Below are positions 8,160-10,334 of a stretch of 64,000 nucleotides of DNA, piece after piece (position 1 is the stretch's first letter; each line of letters begins with the position of its first letter). Source of the DNA: Meiothermus cerbereus DSM 11376 (GTDB lineage: Bacteria; Deinococcota; Deinococci; Deinococcales; Thermaceae); NCBI RefSeq assembly GCF_000620065.1, contig NZ_KK211062.1, forward strand, positions 1 to 64,000. The letters are read 5' to 3'. The translations under genes were made by a program, and so were the position numbers. The notes beneath the pieces are model-generated. The model made no database searches, was not told where the DNA came from, and was given only the letters and a program-made list of their open reading frames with translations.

Positions 8160-9473
8160 GTGGGCCTGCCTTCGCTAAATGATGTGATTGCCGCTATTGC
8201 CACACCCCCCGGCAAGGGCGCGGTGGGGATTGTGCGGGTCTCGGGCAATGGCGCTCTAGAACTGGTCTCGAGGCTCTGGCAGGGCAAAAACCCTTGCAGG
8301 CTGGCCGGTGGGCGCTTTACCTACGGCATAATCTGCGACCCGAACACCCTGGAAGTGCTGGACGAGGCGCTGTTACTGGTCTTCCGCAAGCCGCACTCCT
8401 ACACCGGCCAGGACAGCGCCGAGCTGCACACCCACGGCTCACCCGCGGTGTTGCGCCGGGTTTTGCAGGCACTGTTTGAGCTGGGGGCCCGCCCGGCCCA
8501 GCCCGGCGAATTCACGTTGCGGGCCTACCTGAACGGAAAAATGGACCTGGCCCAGGCCGAGGCGGTGTTGAGCTTGGTAGAGGCCGAGTCAGACGCCGCC
8601 CGGCGGCAGGCCTTGCGGGGCCTCTGCGCGGGGTTGTCGCAGAAGATCACCCACCTCTGCGAGCAATTGTTCGACCTGCTGGCGCACATCCAGGCCTGGC
8701 TGGACTACCCCGAAGAAGGGGTCGAACCCGCCCAGATTCAGGAAACCCTCGAGCCCGTTTTGCAGGAAATCGGCCACCTGCTGGCCACCGCCCCCGCCGG
8801 GCGCATCGCCCAGAAAGGGGCCCGGATTGCCCTGGTGGGGGCCCCCAATGCCGGCAAGTCCAGCCTCCTCAACGCGCTCTTAGGCTACGAGCGGGCCATC
8901 GTTACACCCATCCCAGGCACCACCCGCGACTACCTGGAAGCTCCGCTGGAGATTGCCGGGGTGCCCATTGTGGCTATAGACACCGCCGGAGTCCGGGAAA
9001 CCCACGACCCAATCGAGAAAAGCGGGGTGGAACGGGCCTTACAGATCGCACAGGAAGCCGACCTGGTGCTCTACCTGGCCGACCAGAGCCAGCCCCACCC
9101 CACCCCGCCACCGCTGCCCTGGGAGCGCACCCTGAAGGTAGCCACCAAGGCCGACCTGGCCCCCGCCTGGACAGCGGATTCGTACCTGCGGGTCTCGAGC
9201 CAGACCGGCCTGGGCCTGCACGAGCTACGCCAGCAAATCCACCAGCGGCTTCTGGGCCAGGCCCCCGAGGGGGAGCTTTGGGTCAGCAACGAGCGGCATG
9301 TGGAGGCCCTGCGCCGGGCCCAAACCCACCTGCACGAAGCCCTGCAAGCCCCCCAGGACCTGGCCGCCCTCTCGATCGAGATGGCCCTGGACGCGCTGGC
9401 CGAAATCCTGGGCAAAGACGTTTCGGAAGAGGTGATTGACCGAGTATTCCGTAACTTTTGCGTGGGCAAGTGA
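8160..9473 (+). CDS. mnmE: tRNA modification GTPase MnmE
   Basis: With MnmG, MnmE installs the 5-carboxymethylaminomethyl group on U34 of tRNAs that read split codon boxes. The 437-residue protein has the N-terminal folate-binding domain, a helical domain and an inserted G domain: P-loop GAPNAGKSS (227-235), DTAGVRET (G3) and TKADL (G4). It ends FCVGK, keeping the cysteine of the conserved C-terminal CxGK box. GTG is the start, 8 nt after a TAGACT -10 box. An MnmC-like methyltransferase, acting later in the same pathway, is encoded at 11930-12607. Confidence 0.95.
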   Translation: MGLPSLNDVIAAIATPPGKGAVGIVRVSGNGALELVSRLWQGKNPCRLAGGRFTYGIICDPNTLEVLDEALLLVFRKPHSYTGQDSAELHTHGSPAVLRRVLQALFELGARPAQPGEFTLRAYLNGKMDLAQAEAVLSLVEAESDAARRQALRGLCAGLSQKITHLCEQLFDLLAHIQAWLDYPEEGVEPAQIQETLEPVLQEIGHLLATAPAGRIAQKGARIALVGAPNAGKSSLLNALLGYERAIVTPIPGTTRDYLEAPLEIAGVPIVAIDTAGVRETHDPIEKSGVERALQIAQEADLVLYLADQSQPHPTPPPLPWERTLKVATKADLAPAWTADSYLRVSSQTGLGLHELRQQIHQRLLGQAPEGELWVSNERHVEALRRAQTHLHEALQAPQDLAALSIEMALDALAEILGKDVSEEVIDRVFRNFCVGK

Positions 9474-9548
9474 AAAGTCGAAGGCAAAAAGCCAAGCACC
9501 CCTCGAGCTTTGTCCTTGAACTTCCCACCCTGATGGCGCGCATTCGTT

Positions 9549-9774
9549 GAAAAGCGGCTTCTGTCGTCTGTCCCGAGGGTAATCGTCCCCTGGGTGAACA
9601 GCGGCGCCAGCCGTCTGTCCCGAAGGGGATCGTCCCTGGGTGAACAGCGGCGCCAGCCGTCTGTCCCGAAGGGGATCGTCCGCTTGGTGAACAGCCGCTT
9701 TAGCGGTCTGTCCCGAAGGGGATCGTCCCTAGGTGAACAGGCTGGTCGGGGCTATGTCCCAAAAGACCGTCCCC
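9549..9774 (+). repeat. Tandem array of a 46-47 bp unit, about 4.9 copies
   Basis: Units begin at 9549, 9596, 9642, 9689 and 9735 (last one partial and diverged). Each holds a small stem around GGCGCCAGCC followed by TGTCCCGAAGGGGATCGTCC and TGGGTGAACA. In the fourth unit both stem arms change together (CCGC-ttta-GCGG instead of CGGC-gcca-GCCG), suggesting the hairpin is kept. The array lies between mnmE and a small membrane protein gene and ends just before that gene's promoter. It is not a CRISPR array since there are no unique spacers. Confidence 0.85.
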
Positions 9775-9779
9775 TGCAC

Positions 9780-9808
9780 TTGTACGGTGCTGGCAGCCCA
9801 CGTAAACT
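9780..9808 (+). promoter_or_regulatory. Promoter for gene at 9816
   Basis: TTGTAC (9780-9785), a 17-nt spacer and TAAACT (9803-9808), followed by 7 nt and ATG. One of the best-formed leaderless promoters in the window. Confidence 0.7.
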
Positions 9809-9815
9809 TGCCGCC

Positions 9816-10334
9816 ATGGAGGAGCCCAAAGCGGTAGTCTCAAAACGCAGCCTGCAGACCTATGTGGTTGCGGTAGGGCTGATGGTCATGGGCCTGGCCC
9901 TGGTAGCTTTATGCAGCGCCGCCTGGCTACAGGGCGTCGAGCCGCGCTGGTCGGTGATTCTGTTTGGGCTGCTGGGGGTTTACATGGTGCTACTCGGGGT
10001 GGATGAAGGCTGGCTGAGCGGGCTCGAGGTCACCCCCACCCACCTGCGCATCCAGAGCTTTGGCCGCTGGACGGAACACCCGCTGCCCCGCGTTGAGGCC
10101 GTGGATGGCCTGCGGGACATCCTGGGCGGTGGAATCCAGCTGGTTCTGATAGCCAGCGAAGGCGAGGCCATCCGGGTTCCGCTGCGCCGCTACGCCAACG
10201 CTGGCCCCCTGGCCCAGGGCTTGCTGGATGCGCTGTGGTTGAAAAACCCCCAGCTTATCCTGATGCCCCGTTTGGCCAGGCGGCTGGGCCAGCCCCCCTT
10301 CGGGGTTTTGGCCGCTAAGAAATCCAGGCGTTAG
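9816..10334 (+). CDS. Small membrane protein with a PH-like C-terminal domain
   Basis: A 172-residue protein of unknown function. Two hydrophobic helices occupy about residues 15-65; the rest is a beta-rich cytosolic part (VTPTHLRIQSFGRW, HPLPRVEAVDG, GIQLVLIASEGEAIRVPLRR) resembling bacterial PH-like domains of the YdbS/YdbT kind. ATG 9816 is chosen from its promoter; an in-frame extension upstream is just translation of the tandem repeat. It is followed 16 bp later by the antiporter gene. Confidence 0.65.
   Translation: MEEPKAVVSKRSLQTYVVAVGLMVMGLALVALCSAAWLQGVEPRWSVILFGLLGVYMVLLGVDEGWLSGLEVTPTHLRIQSFGRWTEHPLPRVEAVDGLRDILGGGIQLVLIASEGEAIRVPLRRYANAGPLAQGLLDALWLKNPQLILMPRLARRLGQPPFGVLAAKKSRR

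What the first reader, a model, noticed from the sequence alone, without database searches (positions are those of the whole stretch)
9549..9815. 46-bp tandem array with compensated hairpin just upstream of a small membrane protein gene
Units have conserved CTGTCCCGAAGGGGATCGTCC and a variable stem. In unit 4 both arms change to CCGC/GCGG from CGGC/GCCG. That suggests selection on RNA or single-strand structure. The array ends about 5 bp before a good TTGTAC/TAAACT promoter, so it could bind a regulator or be a separate transcript.
Basis: partly seen in the sequence, partly recalled or inferred. Interest (0 to 1): 0.52.

Follow-up and report, generated by a model that had tools for sequence, protein, structure and literature searches.

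The report
Mobile 42–48-base hairpin repeat in Thermaceae
The array is one of about fifty copies, in this genome, of a tiny hairpin-shaped DNA repeat that has been spreading through Meiothermus and its relatives and often sits in frame inside protein genes, so it looks like a jumping sequence rather than a switch for the neighbouring gene.

Summary
The array is real: three good units (9593-9728) and two decayed ones (9546-9588, 9732-9772). The compensated change in the 9686 unit is real.

It is not local. Covariance models find 52-58 copies in this genome. Copies occur in 20 of 22 genomes of Meiothermus, Calidithermus and Allomeiothermus type (up to about 100 each); 3 of 27 genomes of a Thermus-like genus have one or two weak matches.

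The unit is GGTGNAC, a variable hairpin, GTCCC, a 3-5 nt loop, GGGGATCGTCC. The hairpin arms covary strongly. Of 17 congeners, 14 show both flanks of the window site; none has the array, while the downstream promoter is conserved without it.

Compared sites show inserts of mostly 42 or 48 bp per unit. A CCNC direct repeat flanks many copies. Many copies lie in frame inside genes, including dnaE- and dnaX-type genes. Array periods are multiples of three in genes (39 of 43) more often than between genes (10 of 22).

Best reading: a new REP/RPE-like non-autonomous mobile hairpin element. The hairpin probably serves mobilisation, not the next gene. The enzyme is unknown: neither Y1 transposase nor reverse transcriptase tracks the element.

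The parts
9546..9588 (+). unit 1, decayed
   Evidence: R1 match E 2.2e-4
9593..9635 (+). unit 2, long form (43 nt), P1 stem CGGC/GCCG
   Evidence: R1 match E 6.7e-17
9639..9681 (+). unit 3, long form (43 nt), P1 stem CGGC/GCCG
   Evidence: R1 match E 6.7e-17
9686..9728 (+). unit 4, long form (43 nt), compensated P1 stem CCGC/GCGG
   Evidence: R1 match E 9.1e-17; one pair swapped on both arms
9732..9772 (+). unit 5, very decayed
   Evidence: R1 match E 0.14 only
9780..9808 (+). promoter-like TTGTAC-17-TAAACT of the downstream gene; ancestral, not part of the element
   Evidence: read; conserved in congeners without the array
9816..10334 (+). downstream small membrane-protein-like gene (172 aa), bystander
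   Evidence: ORF; start supported by conserved promoter and ATG; no Pfam match

Best explanation
The array is a local cluster of a dispersed, non-autonomous mobile hairpin element of Thermaceae. Shown: the unit (mostly 37-44 nt; GGTGNAC, hairpin P1 of freely varying but paired sequence, GTCCC-loop-GGGGATCGTCC) occurs at many unrelated sites; orthologous sites without it exist in relatives; against them the insert is mostly one unit plus about four bases (42 or 48 bp) or a multiple; a CCNC-like direct repeat flanks many copies in a fixed register; many copies lie in frame inside protein genes. Inferred: an unidentified trans-acting enzyme recognises P1 by shape plus the invariant flanks, probably as a single-strand hairpin, and inserts the unit at CCNC-like sites with a duplication of about 4 nt. 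Because the 3' end of the element (GTCC) resembles its own target, and because tandem copies can slip or recombine, head-to-tail arrays build up. Copies in genes survive when the added length is a multiple of three without a stop; this is filtering, not evidence of benefit. At the window site the array is a bystander in a spacer.
For: Many dispersed copies. Covarying P1. Empty sites: 14 of 17 congeners at the window site; L025 48-bp insert against 14 orthologues and L012 144-bp insert against 12; 42-bp inserts at L198, L197, L199, L215 and a site with 0, 1 and 2 units in three relatives. CC at -6/-5 in 71 and 58 of 81 array starts. Base -4 equals +1 in 39 of 71, 17.7 expected. Direct repeat of 5 nt or more in 35 of 100 arrays, 17.2 in shuffles. 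In-frame filtering: periods divisible by three 39 of 43 in genes, 10 of 22 outside. Excess on plasmids.
Against: No enzyme identified: Y1_Tnp and RVT_1 presence does not track the element. The direct repeat is not universal: L166 and L025 mismatch, and over half of 71 arrays would be needed to match by more than the 39 seen if every copy kept a perfect repeat. Other net lengths occur: 36 (L031), 46 (L015), 47 (L022). G-T against A-C mismatches (30 against 18) give only weak support for one strand. No movement has been observed; all evidence is comparative. Arm matching could partly come from template switching.
Confidence: 0.78

Rival explanations
1. A single-strand (HUH, Y1) transposition product: a very small relative of IS200/IS605 or RAYT/REP ends, cut 3' of CC at both ends, with the GG of GGTG guiding recognition of CC, and no true duplication.
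For: Hairpin, CC at -6/-5, element 3' end in TCC; elements lie in the loci of some Y1 transposases.
Against: Base -4 matches +1 beyond chance, which this model does not predict. Y1_Tnp was not found in G004, G008, G010, G012, G013 and G015, which carry copies, and was found in G014 and in some Thermus-like genomes without copies. The matches near Y1 genes sit inside tnpA or tnpB as inserts in the cases read (L198, L199, L215), not at the ends of the insertion sequence. The own-genome Y1 locus has no element.
Confidence: 0.25
2. A cis-regulatory or RNA element for the downstream gene, or a small RNA.
For: Conserved pairing; stable folding; position next to a promoter.
Against: Absent from 14 of 14 comparable congeners while the promoter is kept; many copies in both orientations inside genes; no Rfam match.
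Confidence: 0.06
3. Ordinary tandem minisatellite whose arms stay matched by intrastrand template switching, with no transposition.
For: Identical local multiplications, e.g. six units in L133; unit number differs between relatives.
Against: Single units at many unrelated sites (79 of 125 arrays have one unit), clean empty sites and a flanking repeat need insertion as well.
Confidence: 0.07
4. Reverse-transcribed structured RNA inserted by target priming, SINE-like, with 3'-end microhomology to the target.
For: Covarying hairpin, 3' end matching the target, short duplication and no terminal inverted repeats.
Against: RVT_1 (PF00078) is found in only 4 of 50 family genomes and in none of G000, G020, G023, G018 or G002, which are rich in copies.
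Confidence: 0.04

Closest known systems
Rickettsia palindromic elements (RPE)
   Same: Short palindromic repeats found in frame inside many protein genes as well as between genes (PMC2229807 and PMC3733652, passages).
   Different: RPE are 105-146 bp with 12-bp terminal inverted repeats; here 42-48 bp units, no inverted ends, a variable covarying stem and head-to-tail arrays.
GTAG REP elements and RAYT transposases
   Same: Short hairpins, many copies, some intragenic, proposed single-strand mobilisation (PMC3733652).
   Different: No GTAG tag; Y1 transposase presence does not track.
CGTC-tagged REP elements
   Same: Intragenic copies; no associated transposase known; letters CGTC occur in the unit.
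   Different: CGTC lies 3' of P2 instead of at the foot of a stem that begins with AT pairs, stems vary freely, and copies are head-to-tail, while CGTC REPs are mostly head-to-head.
Bacterial MITEs (Correia, RUP, ERIC, YPAL)
   Same: Non-autonomous, dispersed; several have target duplications and empty sites; some sit in frame in genes (PMC2229807).
   Different: About 100-200 bp, mostly with terminal inverted repeats and TA ends; here neither.

Membership tests
Rickettsia palindromic elements | palindromic repeat inserted in frame in protein genes | tested here: met
   In-frame inserts with empty sites; genes with Pfam domains
Rickettsia palindromic elements | about 105-146 bp with 12-bp terminal inverted repeats | tested here: not met
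   Inserts of 42 or 48 bp per unit; unit ends GGTGNAC and GATCGTCC are not inverted copies (by inspection)
GTAG REP / RAYT | GTAG at the foot of the hairpin | tested here: not met
   98 distinct units listed have no GTAG foot
GTAG REP / RAYT | Y1 transposase gene flanked by the repeat | tested here: not met
   30 Y1 loci scanned; 8 matches at E<=0.001 in other places than both ends of one gene in the loci read, weaker pairs at L201 and L212 not resolved
CGTC REP | CGTC tag at stem foot, 8-9 bp stem starting with AT pairs, CCA tail, mostly head-to-head dimers | tested here: not met
   Unit list and head-to-tail arrays against the description in PMC3733652
IS200/IS605-type derivative | insertion 3' of a fixed short target, no duplication | tested here: inconclusive
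   CC preferred but -4/+1 matching points to a duplication
IS200/IS605-type derivative | Y1 transposase available in carriers | tested here: not met
   Not found in several carriers; some of these assemblies are drafts
MITE of a DDE transposon | terminal inverted repeats plus target duplication | tested here: not met
   Duplication supported, inverted ends absent on inspection of units
Rfam RNA family | match to a covariance model | tested here: not met
   9400-9900 searched up to E 1: none of 4227 families

The most novel reading that the evidence does not exclude
A transposition system of a new kind: an enzyme unrelated to Y1 transposases and reverse transcriptases recognises a hairpin by shape (P1 sequence free, pairing required) and inserts single 38-44-nt units with a short CCNC duplication. 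Genes, replication genes among them, tolerate the 14- or 16-codon quantum, and the element stacks on its own end to build arrays of mixed hairpin types.
Probability: 0.25. Interest if true: 0.8.

Novelty: new variant of a known kind. Interest (0 to 1): 0.58.

Why it matters
How REP/RPE-like palindromes move is open; the survey read here says so for its CGTC type. This family offers apparently recent inserts with empty sites, a near-fixed quantum, a candidate target rule, and a hairpin whose letters are free but whose pairing is kept. Some carriers are cultured thermophiles with plasmids rich in copies (A. silvanus, C. chliarophilus), so the mobilising enzyme should be findable. In-frame inserts in conserved enzymes are also natural tests of where a protein accepts 14-16 extra residues.

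Tried and rejected
Rfam: no family. Exact 19-mer outside Thermaceae: of 44 stretches in genome contigs, 32 are Thermaceae and 12 are others. The 19-mer reads VPKGIV; four Microbispora and a Nonomuraea share one site; none shows the paired unit convincingly, so I treat the 12 as chance or coding, although they score 24-32 bits against R1, partly because they were selected for the 19-mer. Viral contigs 0, phages 0, plasmids 3 records. Y1 transposase as resident mobiliser: presence does not track. Reverse transcriptase: does not track. Strand of action by G-T against A-C: weak, p about 0.06. Six-frame openness as an adaptation: rejected as evidence, since 2452 of 20,000 shuffles of a short consensus unit are also open. 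Peptide preference: frames are uneven (antisense 24/5/42, sense 20/6/11), but codon phase of the target could cause it.

Caveats: genes come from my own codon-usage caller; its 82 in-gene arrays of 125 include the window array, which is really intergenic (start corrected). One search counted 174 of 200 units and dropped those not clearly inside or outside a gene. Flank counts keep only arrays with clean ends, distinct flanks and room to the locus end: 81, 71 and 100 rows; one search also left out G020 arrays with leader or trailer. Some loci are orthologous or duplicated (e.g. L112/L114), so counts are not fully independent. The output was cut.

Full report
Observation. The array exists as described, with small corrections. 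TRF gives 9565-9740, period 46; the core 16-mer is present three times against 0.05 expected. A covariance model of the unit finds five units in register, three good (9593, 9639, 9686) and two decayed (9546, 9732), with steps of 46-47. The compensated stem of the 9686 unit is one pair swapped on both arms.

Anatomy. Each unit is GGTGNAC, then hairpin P1, then GTCCC, a loop of 3-5 nt, GGGGATCGTCC. Two main forms occur: a long form (43-44 nt; stem of 4 bp, bulged T, 4 bp) and a short form (about 38 nt, 6-bp stem). In A2 (20 distinct long units) 99.1% of pair cells are paired and 16 cells have double changes, 5.3 in shuffles. In A4 (98 distinct units, both forms) 98.0% are paired, with 103 double-change cells against 38.1. 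A4 was aligned by a model that carries this structure, which favours it; sliding the partner columns drops pairing to 25-57%. The unit list itself shows matched arms of many sequences. Over 148 distinct units that could be parsed out of 181, 896 of 985 P1 pairs are Watson-Crick, 30 G-T, 18 A-C, 41 other. DNA folding gives P1 and P2 for 5 of 6 units tried on the top strand; the L198 unit folds otherwise.

Distribution. A DNA search gives 27 places in the own genome, R1 gives 58 matches at E<=1, R2 gives 52 at E<=0.001 with stricter filters. Of 41 genomes (own and 40 relatives) 21 had matches at E<=0.01. Of 50 genomes of the family, 24 have matches at E<=0.001: 16 of 18 of the own genus, 2 of 2 of g2, 2 of 2 of g4, and only one or two weak matches in 3 of 27 of g5 and in the single g3 genome. 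Named carriers from the exact 19-mer scan are Meiothermus taiwanensis, M. hypogaeus, unnamed Meiothermus, Calidithermus roseus and C. chliarophilus; Allomeiothermus silvanus comes from its plasmids. G023 is A. silvanus: its contig sizes equal those in the genome paper (passage).

Replicon bias. In G022, 31 of 60 matches lie on a 156-kb contig. In G023, 22 of 45 lie on the two plasmids and 13 of 45 in an 84-kb stretch of the chromosome (the counts were made from the listing).

Empty sites. The window site was compared in 17 congeners; 14 gave both flanks and a scan with R2 found no unit there (only matches with E above 0.5 in those loci). Two of the 14 have other spacer DNA of 371 and 407 bp. 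The TTGTA...TAAACTTGCC block before the ATG is kept in L138-L141 without the array. L025 (one unit) is a 48-bp in-frame insert against 14 orthologues; L012 (three units) is a 144-bp in-frame insert against 12. L198 (in tnpA), L199 and L215 (in tnpB) and L197 carry 42-bp inserts; one orthologous site has 0, 1 and 2 units in G010, G016 and G008. Net lengths of 36 (L031), 46 (L015, one unit difference) and 47 (L022) also occur.

Target. Upstream of clean array starts C stands at -6 in 71 of 81 and at -5 in 58 of 81. Base -4 equals +1 in 39 of 71 (17.7 expected), -3 equals +2 in 47 (38.9 expected), while -2 and -1 are at chance. The longest flanking direct repeat is 5 nt or more in 35 of 100 arrays, 17.2 on average in 300 shuffles with a maximum of 33, and the repeats lie mostly in this register. 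This fits a short CCNC duplication but is not universal (L166, L025).

Genes. By my own gene caller 82 of 125 arrays fall in called genes (81 without the window array), 55 antisense and 27 sense, where 82% of the DNA is coding. Own-genome cases with Pfam support: DNA polymerase III alpha (L014), DNA polymerase III tau/gamma (L031), metal P-type ATPase (L012), a Glycos_transf_3 enzyme (L011), a VWA protein (L028); elsewhere a T4SS coupling protein (L120). Annotated cases: NADH-quinone oxidoreductase subunit C, RES NAD+ phosphorylase and a secretin-N protein in A. silvanus, a hypothetical protein in M. taiwanensis. L014 was not compared with an empty site. Periods divisible by three: 39 of 43 in genes, 10 of 22 outside (Fisher p 1.3e-4).

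Arrays. Some arrays are identical local multiplications (six units in L133). In G020, 40 fetched stretches show arrays of one to five units, of about seven hairpin types in mixed order, many between a common leader and trailer, which suggests recombination among units.

Mechanism. Dispersal, empty sites, quantum and flanking repeats support movement by insertion. That the hairpin is needed for this is inferred from pairing with free sequence. The enzyme is unknown; Y1_Tnp and RVT_1 do not track. Template switching could add to arm matching and is not excluded.

Literature. Seen: PMC3733652 (abstract, passages, section 15), PMC2229807 (passages), PMC3035272 (passages); search listings only for the rest. 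No held paper contains the 17-base core on either strand, and no listed paper is about this family; most subscription journals are not held. The naming of the upstream gene 8160-9473 as an mnmE-type GTPase gene is from recall, not from a call.

Noticed in passing
window 9594-10334: A mechanical ORF runs open through the array into the membrane-protein gene and could mislead annotation; the conserved promoter and ATG put the start at 9816.
   Followed up: partly
L222-L260 (G020): Many G020 arrays sit between a leader of ACGTCRTACG-type repeats ending GAAGGGGATCGGTCCC and a trailer GCGTTTAGCGTCTGGCGTTTTGCGTATTGCG, a composite dispersed repeat with one to five mixed hairpin units.
   Followed up: partly
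L253, L254, L258-L260 (G020): In some units the P2 loop is replaced by a longer hairpin-like stretch of about 30 nt.
   Followed up: no
L143 (G004), spacer after the mnmE-type gene: A repeat GTCATTCCGAGCGCAGCGAGGAATCT lies in the orthologous spacer and resembles CGTC-type REPs as described in PMC3733652.
   Followed up: no
L111 and L116 (pMESIL02): Several TnpB genes are annotated but TnpA only once in the stretches read.
   Followed up: no
125 arrays: Inside called genes the element is antisense about twice as often as sense (55 against 27), unexplained.
   Followed up: partly
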